Of a stretch of DNA of 52,676 bases, positions 24,355-52,676 are shown piece by piece (within the stretch, counting starts at the first letter, position 1; the number at the start of each line of letters is the position of its first letter). This DNA is from a virus: IMG/VR virus record IMGVR_UViG_3300007346_005272, positions 1-52,676 of that record. The stretch is one strand, 5' to 3'. The notes under the pieces are model-generated. The model searched no databases and was not told where the DNA came from. It worked only from the letters and a program-made list of their open reading frames with translations. The translations under genes were made by a program, and so were the position numbers.

Positions 24355-25644
24355 TCAGCTCGGTTCGGCGTCGAAGGTGACCTTGACGAACGCTTCCGGA
24401 CGCTTGACAGCGAGGGCCAGACGCTCTTCAGCAAGCACCACGATGGCGTTGCGGACGAAGAAGTCTGAGTGCTGCTCCGAAATACGGATCGTAGCCGCCT
24501 CACGGTCGTAAAGCTGAGCGCCAGTGCCGAAAGCGCCGACAAGAGCGGTGCCTGAAGCAATAGCAGGAGTGTCGATGACGGGGATACGCCAAACACGTGA
24601 CTCAGCGCCACCGGCAACTGACATCGCAAGCAGGTAGGTGCCCTGCGAGTTCTTGGTCAGCTCGATGTCTTCCCAATCTGACGGGTGGACGATGATGCCG
24701 GTCGGCTCGTAGTAGGCAAGGTATGCCAGAGTAGCCGCACGACGGAGAGCATCGGCCTTGGTGTCAGCGACAGGTGAAGTTTCACCAGCAGACCATGCGT
24801 AGGTCTGAACGTCGGTGGTGTTGAGGATACCAGTAAGGTCCTCGCCAGTACCGGCACCGTTCAGGATCTGCTCGTCCTCGTGAAGACGGAGACCGTAAAG
24901 AAGCTCGTTGTCGATGATTGAACGCAGCTGCGGCTCATCGGCAAGAACGTTACGGTGGGCAGCTTCCCAGTGAGCGATGGTACGGACCGGAGCCTGCTCA
25001 CCAACGAAGGTCATCGTTGACTGAGGCTTCGCACCAAAGTTACCGCTGGAGTACTCCGGAACAACTGAAGCGTTGTTCGTGAAGCCAGTCTGGCGGAAGT
25101 ACTCAACCACGGCGGCGTTAGTAGTACGTGCCGGGAACAGGTCACGGACACGGCTACGACGCTGAGCAATCGGGACAATGCCGTCACGCTCAACCGCACC
25201 GAAGGAAGCAGGATCACCCGTGGGCAGCCCTGAGTAAAGGTCCTTCTGGGAAAGTGACTTGGCCTGGAAAGGCGAAACCATGTTTACGCCAGCCTTGCCG
25301 CCCTGAAGTGACTTAAACTCGTCAGAAGCAAGGAAAGCCTCACCAACTGACTTGGCGTGGGTAGCGACTTCGCGCTCAACACCAGCAGCTACCTCAGCGG
25401 CAACTGACTTGTACTCGGCCTCTGAGGACCAAGCCGAAACGTCACGAAGTGAAGTAATGCCCTCAATGAGGCCCTTCATCTCGTTAATCTCAGCCATGTT
25501 TGACTGGAAAGCAGCCTTCTTTTCCGCATCAGCGATAACTGTGGTGCCTTCCACCTGCATCGAATCAACGATCTCCTGCTGCTCAGCCATCTTAGCTGAC
25601 AGAGCAGTCTTGACCTCGTTGAGCCGACTCTCATCAAAACTCAT
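24355..25644 (-). CDS. Major capsid protein, HK97 fold
   Basis: In this 429-aa protein, residues ~1-115 are a helical, charged region (NEVKTALSAKMAEQQEIVDS, MAEINEMKGLIEGITSLRD) like the HK97 delta/scaffold domain that the prohead protease removes. The HK97 core follows: RRSRVRDLFPARTTNAAVVE near 162, RLHEDEQILNGAGTGEDLTG, GIIVHPSDWEDIELTK, and the terminal DREAATIRISEQHSDFFVRN and VVLAEERLALAVKRPEAFVK strands. Strong AAGGAG before ATG 25644. It has its own candidate promoter and is followed by a strong terminator, which fits very high expression. The higher GC of this gene compared with its neighbours also suits a highly expressed gene. Confidence 0.95.
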   Translation of the reverse strand: MSFDESRLNEVKTALSAKMAEQQEIVDSMQVEGTTVIADAEKKAAFQSNMAEINEMKGLIEGITSLRDVSAWSSEAEYKSVAAEVAAGVEREVATHAKSVGEAFLASDEFKSLQGGKAGVNMVSPFQAKSLSQKDLYSGLPTGDPASFGAVERDGIVPIAQRRSRVRDLFPARTTNAAVVEYFRQTGFTNNASVVPEYSSGNFGAKPQSTMTFVGEQAPVRTIAHWEAAHRNVLADEPQLRSIIDNELLYGLRLHEDEQILNGAGTGEDLTGILNTTDVQTYAWSAGETSPVADTKADALRRAATLAYLAYYEPTGIIVHPSDWEDIELTKNSQGTYLLAMSVAGGAESRVWRIPVIDTPAIASGTALVGAFGTGAQLYDREAATIRISEQHSDFFVRNAIVVLAEERLALAVKRPEAFVKVTFDAEPS

Positions 25645-35935: not shown

Positions 35936-37828
35936 TCAGGCCAAATCTTCACCATCGAGCATGTTCTGGAATTCGGCCAAAGCGTTGATAAGCTCAACGT
36001 CTTCTTCCTTCTCCGCAGGCGCATCAGCCTCCGCTTCAGGTGCCTCTGGCTCTTCCTCGTTCCAATCCGCAGGAATCATGTCTTCCTTGCCAAGCTCCTT
36101 AGCACGCTTCATGATGTGCTCCTTAGCCGCAGCCTTATCCTTGGCACGACCGTAAGCCTGGATAGCGTTATCCAGATCCGCAGCATCAGCAATTGGGAAA
36201 GAACCGTCAGGAAGAGCGTCGCCAGACTCAGCCATGGCCTCACGCTGTTCACGAGAGTACATGCGCTTGATCTCAAGCTCAGCCTCAAGAGCCTTCAGTT
36301 CATCTTCCTCGTCCATGTCGTAGTCGAAAGGATTCTCAACTTCGTACTCATCGAAGCCAAGGACCTTGCCCTCAGGAGAAACGAACACATCGTAGCTCTT
36401 CTCGTTGGTATCAACCTCAACGACGTACACGTCCTGATTAGCAAACACATCGACCAGAACGCCCATCACGTCGCCCTTGATGTCGAGATCCTCAAGAGCC
36501 TTAACGGCAGCGTCTTCGGCGTCGGCCTGAGATACAATGTCCTGCATCTCACCAGACTTGGCATCCATCTCATCTTCATCAATACGCAGCCAGCCCATCT
36601 CCTCGCCCTCGCCGGACAGGAAGACCTGAATGCACGAACCATCGGCACGCTTCACATCGACAACGAAAATGTCGTCTGCTGTTGAGTAACCAGAACCAAC
36701 AATCTCTGAACCTTGATGTAGTGACTTGACCTGGGACTCAATATCTCCTAAACCGGGGAGATCTTCGGTAGGCATACACCCTCCTTGACAAAACTCGCAT
36801 GGTTGATTAACTGACTTACGGCTAAATCCGCACAGGAAGTCATCTGACTTCATGCCCTCTGCGGGCATTCCTGCAGGAGCATCTTCCTGTGCCTGCTGCT
36901 GAGCAGCCTGCCGAGCTTCACGAGCAGCTTCAGCCTGTTCGGCTTCACGCTCTTTCTTGGCAGCCATTTCTTTCTTGCTCAGATCCATCCACTCATCGTG
37001 GGAAGCGCAAGGCATGAACATCTTACCTGCACGGTGCATGCCTTCGCAACCAAGAGCTTCAGCACGTTCCATCGCTTCTTCAGCAGTTTCAAATACGTCT
37101 TCAACAGCGTTCTCGTCTTCTGCCTTCCGCATAGCGTTCAGCTCAAGGGGACTGCGACGACGATAGCGTCTACCATAGCCCTTGCTGGTGCCCTCTTCGT
37201 AAACATCGACAGCCTCAAAAGCTCCCTTAGCGTCTTCGTCAAGACCATCGTAGTCTTCATCGGAAACTAGCTCACCGTCTTCCATCATTTCCTTAAACCG
37301 AGAGTCGGTCAAGAAAATTGAAGGCTTGTCACTCTTAGGCGCACGCATCATTGACATGATGACTGCGGCCTTTTCGCTCACATCATCATCTTCGTCGTCT
37401 TCGGCGTCTTCGTCGGCTTCTTCTTCGTCGGCTTCCTCGCCATCTTCGTCGGCTTCCTCGCCATCTTCGTCGGCTTCCTCGGCGTCCTCGTCATCCTCGT
37501 CATCCTCGTCCGCCTCATCAGCTTCGTCTTCGTCAGCCTCGTCCTCGTCATCTTCTGACTTGAAACGGAACATCCAACCCATAGGAGTATCACCCTTCTC
37601 GTCCATGACAAGAACCTTCTCCATGAGCAGCTGATCTTCTTCAGAAAGCTCAGCAAACTCCTCTTCAGAAATTAGCTCACCAGCATCCTGCATCTCCTTG
37701 AAACGGATATCGGTCATGAAAACAGAAGGCGCACCCTTCTCGTCCTCATGCATGCCCTTCTCTTCACCGTCCAGCATCGCCTGAATTTCTTCAAACTTCT
37801 GAAGGTCTTCGTTAAGATTTTCACTCAT
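35936..37828 (-). CDS. Acidic modular head protein (possible scaffold/accessory)
   Basis: A 630-aa, extremely acidic protein. Modules: a duplicated 35-residue unit, [AK]PS[VI]F[ML]TD-x-RFKEM...DGEL[IV]S-type, at ~33-66 and ~168-201; a DE-only tract at ~91-149 with DGEEADE repeats; a C-x3-H-x8-C motif (C261-H265-C274); a CxxC-x3-C cluster (C344, C347, C351) after C333; two PepSY-like alpha/beta repeats (~360-420 and ~425-495); and LPDGSFPI...NAIQAYGRAKD (~539-588), shared with the protein at 25831-27348. Its first and last ~20 residues also resemble each other (IQAMLDGEE, FQNMLDGED). It sits right after the prohead protease, where scaffolds are often encoded. Scaffold role is inferred. Confidence 0.7.
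   Translation of the reverse strand: MSENLNEDLQKFEEIQAMLDGEEKGMHEDEKGAPSVFMTDIRFKEMQDAGELISEEEFAELSEEDQLLMEKVLVMDEKGDTPMGWMFRFKSEDDEDEADEDEADEADEDDEDDEDAEEADEDGEEADEDGEEADEEEADEDAEDDEDDDVSEKAAVIMSMMRAPKSDKPSIFLTDSRFKEMMEDGELVSDEDYDGLDEDAKGAFEAVDVYEEGTSKGYGRRYRRRSPLELNAMRKAEDENAVEDVFETAEEAMERAEALGCEGMHRAGKMFMPCASHDEWMDLSKKEMAAKKEREAEQAEAAREARQAAQQQAQEDAPAGMPAEGMKSDDFLCGFSRKSVNQPCEFCQGGCMPTEDLPGLGDIESQVKSLHQGSEIVGSGYSTADDIFVVDVKRADGSCIQVFLSGEGEEMGWLRIDEDEMDAKSGEMQDIVSQADAEDAAVKALEDLDIKGDVMGVLVDVFANQDVYVVEVDTNEKSYDVFVSPEGKVLGFDEYEVENPFDYDMDEEDELKALEAELEIKRMYSREQREAMAESGDALPDGSFPIADAADLDNAIQAYGRAKDKAAAKEHIMKRAKELGKEDMIPADWNEEEPEAPEAEADAPAEKEEDVELINALAEFQNMLDGEDLA
37380..37556. repeat. Low-complexity coding repeat (Asp/Glu tract)
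   Basis: GAC/GAG/GCC-type codons repeat here, including a 21-bp period encoding DGEEADE three times (about 37425-37490). It is coding repeat within the acidic head protein and may vary in length between relatives. Confidence 0.8.
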
Positions 37829-42557: not shown

Positions 42558-43499
42558 CTAAGCGTCTCTTACCGCATTAAAGACATTTACTTTAAGCCGA
42601 TGACTGAAGTTGTCTAACTCTAACGAGTGCTGTGCTGCTTCAATCGGTGGAATATCTCTGTGGAAATCTATGTATTCCGTAATAGCGTTATACGCCGCCC
42701 ACTTCGTTTCACCGAACCGGCCAAGATTATGAGGCTGACGGTAAATAGTATTGATCTTCTCGTGCACATCTTCAGCGTTGGAACGCTTCTTAGCAGAAGA
42801 AGCTCCTTGAGTGGACCAGAACTTTTCCATCACCTTGAACATTTTATCAGCAGACATGTGAGAAGATGTAAACTCGCTGATGATAAGGTCAAGCTTCTCC
42901 GACCAAATCTGACGCATCGTGAGAGCTTCTGTCGCATCCATAGGATCAATCGTCTCATTCGGTGTGTGTCGCTTACGCAAACTAAAATCTGCATCAGCAG
43001 AAAAACGATAAACAGAATTTGTTTCAGCCCGAACATCTAGGTTGTAATAGCAAATAGGGATACTGCCATCGTGGGAAGTAATGACAACGATATAGTTATC
43101 TACAGAATCCTCACCCATGGTAGACAGGATCTTTGTGCTACTATGCTTAACGGCCACGAAAAACTTACGACCTTCCTCAAGCACCCCGCAACTATGCAAA
43201 GAGGCTGCGCCGTTTGCTTTTGCCACGATATCTCTAGCTCTATCTAAAATGCTAGAGTTGGGTACAACCGAGTAACGTTCTTTCACGACCTCCCACATGA
43301 TGCGGTGAGTCTGATCCAAACTAACTCGGTTAATGATAAAGCGGTTAGGGAACGTGGCGATCTTGCCCATAACGTCGTCATGCATCAAGACCGGGCTTAG
43401 TGTAACAGTATAGTCGCCTTTGGACTTGAGTAAAATCTCGTTGTTCGATTGCTCAGACGAAATCCTAGTCCCAAGGTCAAGCCATGACTTATCGCTCAT
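42558..43499 (-). CDS. DUF932 family protein
   Basis: A 313-aa protein from ATG 43499 (MSDKSWLDLGTRISSEQ). A TTG start further upstream (43541) would read through the tandem repeat and is rejected. DUF932 patterns: KFFVAVKHSSTKI, DNYIVVITSHDGSIPI, SLRKRHTPNETIDPMDATEA, and the conserved GRFGETKWAAYNAITEYIDF near residue 265. DUF932 proteins are common on phages and plasmids; their function is unknown. Its 5' end has been tandemly copied twice upstream in 61-bp units. Its stop abuts the terminase stop. Confidence 0.85.
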   Translation of the reverse strand: MSDKSWLDLGTRISSEQSNNEILLKSKGDYTVTLSPVLMHDDVMGKIATFPNRFIINRVSLDQTHRIMWEVVKERYSVVPNSSILDRARDIVAKANGAASLHSCGVLEEGRKFFVAVKHSSTKILSTMGEDSVDNYIVVITSHDGSIPICYYNLDVRAETNSVYRFSADADFSLRKRHTPNETIDPMDATEALTMRQIWSEKLDLIISEFTSSHMSADKMFKVMEKFWSTQGASSAKKRSNAEDVHEKINTIYRQPHNLGRFGETKWAAYNAITEYIDFHRDIPPIEAAQHSLELDNFSHRLKVNVFNAVRDA

Positions 43500-43560
43500 A
43501 TCCGGACCCCGGCTCAGACGAAATCCTAGTCCCAAGGTCAAGCCATGACTTATCGCTCAT
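43489..43560 (-). CDS. 23-codon mini-ORF created by the tandem repeat (copy 2)
   Basis: ATG 43560 opens with the same first 16 codons as the DUF932 protein (MSDKSWLDLG...), then shifts into PGSGYER and stops. Its stop overlaps the ATG of the real DUF932 gene at 43499, keeping start-stop coupling. Translation is plausible but unproven; the peptide is probably a by-product. Confidence 0.4.
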   Translation of the reverse strand: MSDKSWLDLGTRISSEPGSGYER

Positions 43561-43621
43561 ATCCGGACCCCGGCTCAGACGAAATCCTAGTCCCAAGGTC
43601 AAGCCATGACTTATCGCTCAT
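43550..43621 (-). CDS. 23-codon mini-ORF created by the tandem repeat (copy 3)
   Basis: Identical peptide to the mini-ORF at 43489-43560. Its ATG (43621) overlaps the end of the MazG-like gene by 11 nt, which is presumably the original coupling arrangement of the DUF932 start. Confidence 0.4.
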   Translation of the reverse strand: MSDKSWLDLGTRISSEPGSGYER

Positions 43622-43946
43622 CCCCGGACCCCTGAATCACGTTCCGATCGTATCGGTCAAAAAGCTTTTCGATATTTTCTTTAGCAATGTCGTTGAGATC
43701 AATACCAAGCTCCCAGGCGAGCACGGCAGCATACCAAAGCACATCACCGATTTCTTTACTGATAGCAGAGCGGAATACCGAATCAGTATAGTCCCCGTCA
43801 CTGTCTCTAATGTGCTTCTTTACCTTGTCAGCAACTTCGCCTGCTTCGCTAGCGAGACCAAGAGTCAGGTACTCAACCGCTGATTCCTTCGGATAAATAG
43901 CGGTCGTCTTAGCACCAACCTGATACGCATTAAATTCCATTCCCAT
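43611..43946 (-). CDS. MazG-like NTP pyrophosphohydrolase
   Basis: A 111-aa protein from ATG 43946 (MGMEFNAYQ), chosen because AGGAG lies 5 nt upstream; the ATG at 43961 would put that site inside the gene. All-alpha NTP pyrophosphatase pattern: LTLGLASEAGEVADKVKKHI (E-x2-E) and ISKEIGDVLWYAAVLAWELG (E-x2-D), the two helices holding Mg2+. Likely hydrolyses (d)NTPs to monophosphates, for nucleotide sanitation or ppGpp control. It overlaps nothing upstream and leads into the triplicated DUF932 start. Confidence 0.85.
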   Translation of the reverse strand: MGMEFNAYQVGAKTTAIYPKESAVEYLTLGLASEAGEVADKVKKHIRDSDGDYTDSVFRSAISKEIGDVLWYAAVLAWELGIDLNDIAKENIEKLFDRYDRNVIQGSGDER

Positions 43947-43957
43947 TTTATCTCCTG

Positions 43958-44485
43958 TCACAGCGACTCGGGATCGCCCGTCGGTCGCTCAATCTTAACG
44001 CTCTCTCCTGTTGCCGATTCAATCGGCACCCAGGCAGGCGAATACTTATGTGCTTTAATCTTACGCATCTTGATTAAAGAACCTTCCATGAGCAACATAA
44101 ACTCATCATCATCTAAGCCTAGCTGATCTTGGAAATCTTCACCATCAATATCGTTATCTAAAAACAACTCTCGCAAAAGCTCTGACAAGAACTTATTGAC
44201 TACAACGCCACGGTTCCGGTTCAGGTTCACGTGGAGTATCGCTGCCTCAACATCATCCACGTCTACCTTTACAATAGGGACTTCTTCTAGCTCTAGAAGC
44301 TTAGCAATCTCCCAACGATGGAACCCATCAATGATACATGCAGTAGATGCTTGACATACAATTGGTTGAAGTATGCCAAACTTTTCAACAGAGGTACGCA
44401 ATCTATTGAAGTCCGGTGAAACAACATAGTTCACTGAACCCCAAAAAGAAGGCTGCAATTTATTTGGAGAAACTGAAATGTACAT
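43958..44485 (-). CDS. ParB/IbrB-like nuclease-domain protein
   Basis: In this 175-aa protein, residues ~25-105 form a ParB-type N domain: LRTSVEKFGILQPIVCQ, then IIDGFHRWEIAKLLELEEVP with the G-x-HR motif near 53-56, and HVNLNRNRGVVV. It lies 4 nt after the PAPS-reductase-like gene. This pair (ParB-like plus PAPS reductase-like) is the IbrB/IbrA arrangement known from phages and enterobacteria. No centromere-like repeats are near, so partition is unlikely. Confidence 0.8.
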   Translation of the reverse strand: MYISVSPNKLQPSFWGSVNYVVSPDFNRLRTSVEKFGILQPIVCQASTACIIDGFHRWEIAKLLELEEVPIVKVDVDDVEAAILHVNLNRNRGVVVNKFLSELLRELFLDNDIDGEDFQDQLGLDDDEFMLLMEGSLIKMRKIKAHKYSPAWVPIESATGESVKIERPTGDPESL

Positions 44486-52645: not shown

Positions 52646-52676
52646 TATGTTTCCTTAGTAAATAGTAACAAGCCTA

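What the first reader, a model, noticed from the sequence alone, without database searches (positions are those of the whole stretch)
43451..43621. 61-bp triplication of a gene junction preserves stop-start coupling and creates two 23-codon mini-ORFs
The unit carries the last bases of the MazG-like gene and the first 16 codons of the DUF932 gene. Because 61 is not divisible by 3, each extra copy ends in the next ATG's overlapping stop (ATGAGCGATAA). Ribosomes could hop through two identical mini-ORFs before the real start. This could be a fresh duplication, a phase-variable device or an assembly artefact.
Basis: seen in the sequence. Interest (0 to 1): 0.7.

Follow-up and report, generated by a model that had tools for sequence, protein, structure and literature searches.

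The report
Phage gene-junction repeat, three copies
A 61-letter stretch where one phage gene ends and the next begins has been copied in tandem, once in several near-identical phages and twice in this one, and the copying happens to leave both genes intact with two tiny reading frames between them; it is most likely a recent, harmless copy-number mutation.

Summary
In detail: on the minus strand three 61-bp tandem copies (43451-43632) span the end of a MazG-like gene and the first 16 codons of a DUF932 gene. This creates two identical 23-codon ORFs, each ending in a TAA that overlaps the next ATG.

Relatives give the history. All 14 more distant related contigs (74-98% protein identity) have ONE copy, with the genes overlapping by 11 nt. 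Four viral contigs about 99.9% identical to the window have TWO copies. Only the window has THREE. So the array grew 1 -> 2 -> 3: an initial duplication (CA at both ends, three base changes in the linker), then an exact 61-bp expansion between ~48-bp identical bodies.

DUF932 begins at ATG 43499; the TTG-started extension is not native. The two-copy state is not one contig's artefact. The third copy needs k-mers (k>=51) that a two-copy genome lacks, but read support was not available.

I find no sign of a dedicated device. Predicted ribosome-binding strength and folding of each copy match single-copy relatives. Selection cannot be tested because the carriers are nearly clonal. The mini-ORF relay is plausible and needs only unit length = 1 mod 3. 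Closest analogue: mycobacterial MIRUs. It is not one.

The parts
43451..43632 (-). Tandem array of three 61-bp copies across the MazG/DUF932 junction
   Evidence: TRF score 350; sequence
43574..43634 (-). Copy 1 (original MazG 3' end, linker CAGGGGTCCGGGG), starting at the CA that also lies just after copy 3
   Evidence: same linker as single-copy relatives such as L005
43513..43573 (-). Copy 2, linker CCGGGGTCCGGAT (three changes against copy 1)
43452..43512 (-). Copy 3, identical to copy 2; runs into the original DUF932 coding sequence
43550..43621 (-). Mini-ORF 1, 23 codons, ATG ... TAA; its stop overlaps the ATG of mini-ORF 2
43489..43560 (-). Mini-ORF 2, identical 23 codons; its stop overlaps the real DUF932 ATG at 43499
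43611..43961 (-). MazG-like pyrophosphohydrolase gene (first possible start GTG 43961; ATG 43946 behind GGAGAT is the likelier start); stop TAA unchanged
   Evidence: Pfam MazG 5.3e-11; PHROG 229 5.3e-37
42558..43499 (-). DUF932 gene, native start ATG 43499, 313 aa, unchanged by the duplication
   Evidence: Pfam DUF932 1.5e-25; PHROG 1221; N-terminus invariant in the alignment

Best explanation
A recent, probably near-neutral short tandem duplication (a phage minisatellite/VNTR) at an overlapping gene junction. Step 1 (history shown by relatives, mechanism inferred): in the ancestor of one nearly clonal phage lineage, the 61 bp from a CA just upstream of the DUF932 ribosome-binding site to a CA about 16 codons into DUF932 were copied in tandem. 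Step 2 (shown): three base changes now distinguish the linker of the extra copy. Step 3 (result shown, mechanism inferred): mispairing of the ~48-bp identical bodies added one exact copy in the window's strain. Both proteins survive because a tandem copy across a junction always leaves the first gene's end in copy 1 and the second gene's start in the last copy. Without the mini-ORFs the real stop and start would be +50 (two copies) or +111 nt (three copies) apart instead of -11. The mini-ORFs re-link them because 61 = 1 mod 3 brings the DUF932 frame onto the old MazG stop. DUF932 is probably still translated, partly by relay (terminate, reinitiate, 23 codons, twice) and partly by fresh initiation at its own copied Shine-Dalgarno-like site, perhaps at a somewhat changed level (inferred).
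For: Copy number 1 in 14 relatives, 2 in four contigs, 3 in the window. The two-copy contigs are ~99.9% identical to the window over 4.7-39.5 kb. Copies 2 and 3 are identical and copy 1 differs only in three linker bases. Proteins on both sides are unchanged. The aSD pairing estimate is -7.0 (copy 1) and -7.6 (copies 2, 3) against -7.0 to -9.5 in relatives; mean openness around the start is 0.41-0.45 against 0.36-0.55. The array RNA is no more folded than shuffles (z = -0.74). The same lineage carries another tandem duplication, 20 bp, single in relatives, so short duplications arise here without any special device.
Against: Three changes lie within 13 bp of linker while the 48-bp body has none between copies 1 and 2; this clustering could reflect error-prone joining but also selection on the start region. 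The presence of two copies in four datasets shows that the duplication is not immediately lost.
Confidence: 0.8

Rival explanations
1. A functional, copy-number-variable translational attenuator: each added copy inserts one more terminate/reinitiate step, so DUF932 output falls (or is tuned) stepwise with copy number, and unequal recombination switches the number.
For: Copy number varies 1/2/3 among relatives. Stop-start overlaps are recreated exactly in each copy. Coupling is known to weaken when stop and start move apart, and short ORFs can deliver ribosomes (PMC12548453). Repeat length upstream of Mtb-fpg1 was reported to correlate with expression, although the individual results quoted there are mixed (PMC2734929).
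Against: The frame condition has a one-in-three chance for any duplication. Carriers form one near-clonal lineage, so there is no recurrence and no testable conservation. Start-site features are the same in every copy, so fresh initiation could bypass the relay.
Confidence: 0.1
2. The third copy (not the duplication) is an assembly error in the window; the true allele has two copies, or the number is three or more but not exactly known.
For: All four near-identical contigs have two copies. Up to k = 50 the 2- and 3-copy alleles have the same k-mer set, and up to k = 110 the 3-copy array has repeated k-mers. No reads available.
Against: From k = 51 the three-copy allele needs k-mers that a two-copy genome does not contain, and from k = 111 it is fully resolved. 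The window also carries its own SNPs in this region against the two-copy contigs: 42369 against all four, 45907 and 47070 against three, so it is a distinct strain.
Confidence: 0.09
3. The duplication adds a 14-residue N-terminal extension to DUF932 through a TTG start at 43541.
For: The frame is open (ORF 42558-43541).
Against: The frame is absent from single-copy relatives and reads part of the copied sequence in a frame used by neither gene. The native ATG and first residues are invariant in the family.
Confidence: 0.01

Closest known systems
Mycobacterial interspersed repetitive units (MIRUs), described by Supply et al. 1997 and reviewed in PMC12548453
   Same: Tandem units of similar size (MIRUs 40-100 bp, PMC2734929) at gene junctions, with a short ORF in the unit that links translation to the next gene; copy number varies between strains.
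   Different: MIRUs are interspersed at some 41 places, appear mobile and couple with -4 nt spacing (PMC2734929, PMC12548453). Here the unit is a local copy of the two genes' own ends, at a single place, with an 11-nt overlap.
Ordinary short tandem duplications / VNTRs (minisatellites) formed by slippage or unequal recombination
   Same: Near-perfect head-to-tail copies, short identity at the ends, exact later expansion, copy number differing between near-identical genomes.
   Different: Nothing tested sets it apart, except that the unit spans an overlapping stop-start junction and so makes coupled mini-ORFs.
Short upstream ORFs coupled to a gene (e.g. upstream of iraD, PMC5574718, title and abstract only)
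   Same: A short ORF directly upstream of, and possibly coupled to, a gene.
   Different: No regulator or conserved leader is indicated here; the mini-ORFs are by-products of the copy and occur in one lineage.

Membership tests
Short tandem duplication / VNTR | Head-to-tail near-identical copies, far above chance | tested here: met
   TRF score 350; 0 of 100 shuffles hold the junction pattern
Short tandem duplication / VNTR | Copy number differs between near-identical genomes | tested here: met
   2 copies in four ~99.9% identical contigs, 3 in the window
MIRU | Unit size 40-100 bp in tandem at a gene junction | tested here: met
   61 bp; size range from PMC2734929
MIRU | Interspersed at several genomic places | tested here: not met
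   One place only in the window; pattern found in the viral collection only at the same junction
MIRU | ORF coupled to the next gene with -4 nt spacing | tested here: not met
   Overlap is 11 nt, ATGAGCGATAA
Termination-reinitiation coupled gene pair | Stop and start overlap or lie very close | tested here: met
   Met for the single-copy junction and for each mini-ORF step
Termination-reinitiation coupled gene pair | Translation of the downstream gene depends on the upstream one | not testable with these tools
   Needs reporters or ribosome profiling

The most novel reading that the evidence does not exclude
A phage 'ribosome relay' whose length changes by unequal recombination: each 61-bp copy adds one terminate/reinitiate step, so copy number sets DUF932 dosage. 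It would be a MIRU-like translational rheostat made from the genes' own junction.
Probability: 0.08. Interest if true: 0.65.

Novelty: new member of a known kind. Interest (0 to 1): 0.25.

Why it matters
It is a clean natural series (1, 2, 3 copies in close relatives) showing how a tandem copy across an overlapping gene pair keeps both genes and makes short coupled ORFs for free. That is a possible starting point for MIRU-like elements and short upstream ORFs, and a ready-made set of alleles for testing serial reinitiation. By itself it is probably a neutral mutation.

Tried and rejected
blastn of 5.5 kb around the junction against 50,697 phage records: no match, so no cultured phage with this DNA in that collection. 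DUF932 and terminase hits in named phages are below 60% identity; the host stays unknown. A scan of viral contigs with an alignment found only one further contig, a single-copy relative (L064). RNA folding of the array shows nothing unusual. Literature searches for a phage junction duplication acting on translation gave no direct precedent; the DUF932 search returned ten papers, none with the term in title or abstract, and none was read; IMG dataset numbers are not in the paper library, so sampling sites were not established. No test of selection was attempted on the array, because carriers differ by a handful of SNPs over tens of kb. Genome contigs was not scanned.

Full report
Observation. 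The array is real in the given sequence: 43451-43632, period 61, three copies, 98% match. On the minus strand the three ATGAGCGATAA motifs start at 43621, 43560 and 43499. The first two open identical 23-codon ORFs, and each of these ends in the TAA overlapping the next ATG. The upstream gene is MazG-like (Pfam 5.3e-11; PHROG 229) and the downstream one DUF932 (Pfam 1.5e-25; PHROG 1221, unknown function). Neighbours are a ParB-like gene, a PAPS-reductase-like gene and, in opposite orientation, the large terminase gene; the window is a viral (phage) contig of 52,676 bp.

Relatives. Searching 2.9 million viral contigs with DUF932 gave 17 close relatives, and an alignment search one more. Thirteen of the first 17 and the further one (L064) have a single copy with the genes overlapping by 11 nt; the overlap is kept even at 74% protein identity. 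Four contigs (3300007640, 3300006026, 3300006916, 3300025828) have exactly two copies, with the same diverged linker as the window's extra copies. A separate DNA-pattern scan of the collection found the duplication junction in these four only. They are ~99.9% identical to the window: 8 differences in 24.6 kb, 3 in 11.5 kb, 2 in 4.7 kb, and 13 plus one 28-bp gap in 39.5 kb, leaving out the two bases that only reflect the array alignment. The window has its own SNPs against them, so it is a separate strain with a third copy. Whether the four datasets are independent samples was not established.

History. Aligned from the CA before the Shine-Dalgarno-like GGGG, the three copies are identical except for three bases in the linker of copy 1. 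CA also follows copy 3, so the first duplication can be read as joining at a 2-base identity followed by changes, or as a join with one added base; this is inference. The later step from two to three copies is exactly what mispairing of the ~48-bp identical bodies gives. Copy 1's body shares the window lineage's differences from the nearest single-copy relative (L005), so the duplication is younger than that split, or the copies have been made alike since.

Artefact. A two-copy genome and a three-copy genome have the same k-mers up to k = 50. From 51 on the three-copy one has extra k-mers, and from 111 on none of its k-mers repeat. An assembler working beyond 50 would need real reads (or chimeras) for the third copy. 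Without reads the third copy remains likely, not shown.

Mechanism. Stop-to-start distance of the real genes goes from -11 (one copy) to +50 (two) and +111 (three). Published work says that coupling is best between -4 and +3 nt, falls 3- to 10-fold towards +40, and falls faster with longer overlaps (PMC12548453). The mini-ORFs would bridge this gap by relay. The relay needs unit length = 1 mod 3, one chance in three for a random duplication, and an open frame. Each copy also carries the same start region as in single-copy relatives, so fresh initiation at the real ATG is equally possible. I therefore expect DUF932 expression to persist with at most a moderate change. That is inference: no expression data exist here.

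Comparison. The best known analogue is the MIRU of mycobacteria, a unit with a short ORF coupled to the next gene (PMC12548453; PMC2734929). Two defining MIRU features, interspersion and -4 spacing, are not met. It is filed as a short tandem duplication/VNTR at a gene junction.

Verdict. Real, recent, well explained by ordinary mutation; a tidy example rather than a new system.

Noticed in passing
52657-52676 (window end); L024 16638-16681; L027 18723-18766: A second tandem duplication, 20 bp (TAGGCTTGTTACTATTTACT), lies upstream of the next gene in two of the two-copy contigs and is single in relatives. The window stops exactly at the start of one unit, as a contig might if a sample held both one- and two-copy forms.
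   Followed up: partly
L024 14399-14434; L027 16484-16519: Perfect 18-bp tandem duplication in the same lineage, beyond the window; on the minus strand it appears to lie in frame near the start of a coding sequence (ELYEKG twice). Relatives did not align across it, so its age is unknown.
   Followed up: partly
24531-24558: 28 bp present in the window are missing from the near-identical contig 3300025828_003715, inside the 429-aa ORF 24355-25644, which would shift its frame near the C-terminus; could be a real deletion or an assembly error.
   Followed up: partly
37389-37552: Low-complexity D/E-rich repeat region in the 630-aa ORF, with different repeat lengths in relatives (L036, L042).
   Followed up: no
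L027 151-201: Perfect 25-bp tandem repeat (CGAACACATGTTCGGACATGCCGAA), itself nearly palindromic, near the end of contig 3300006026_002941.
   Followed up: no
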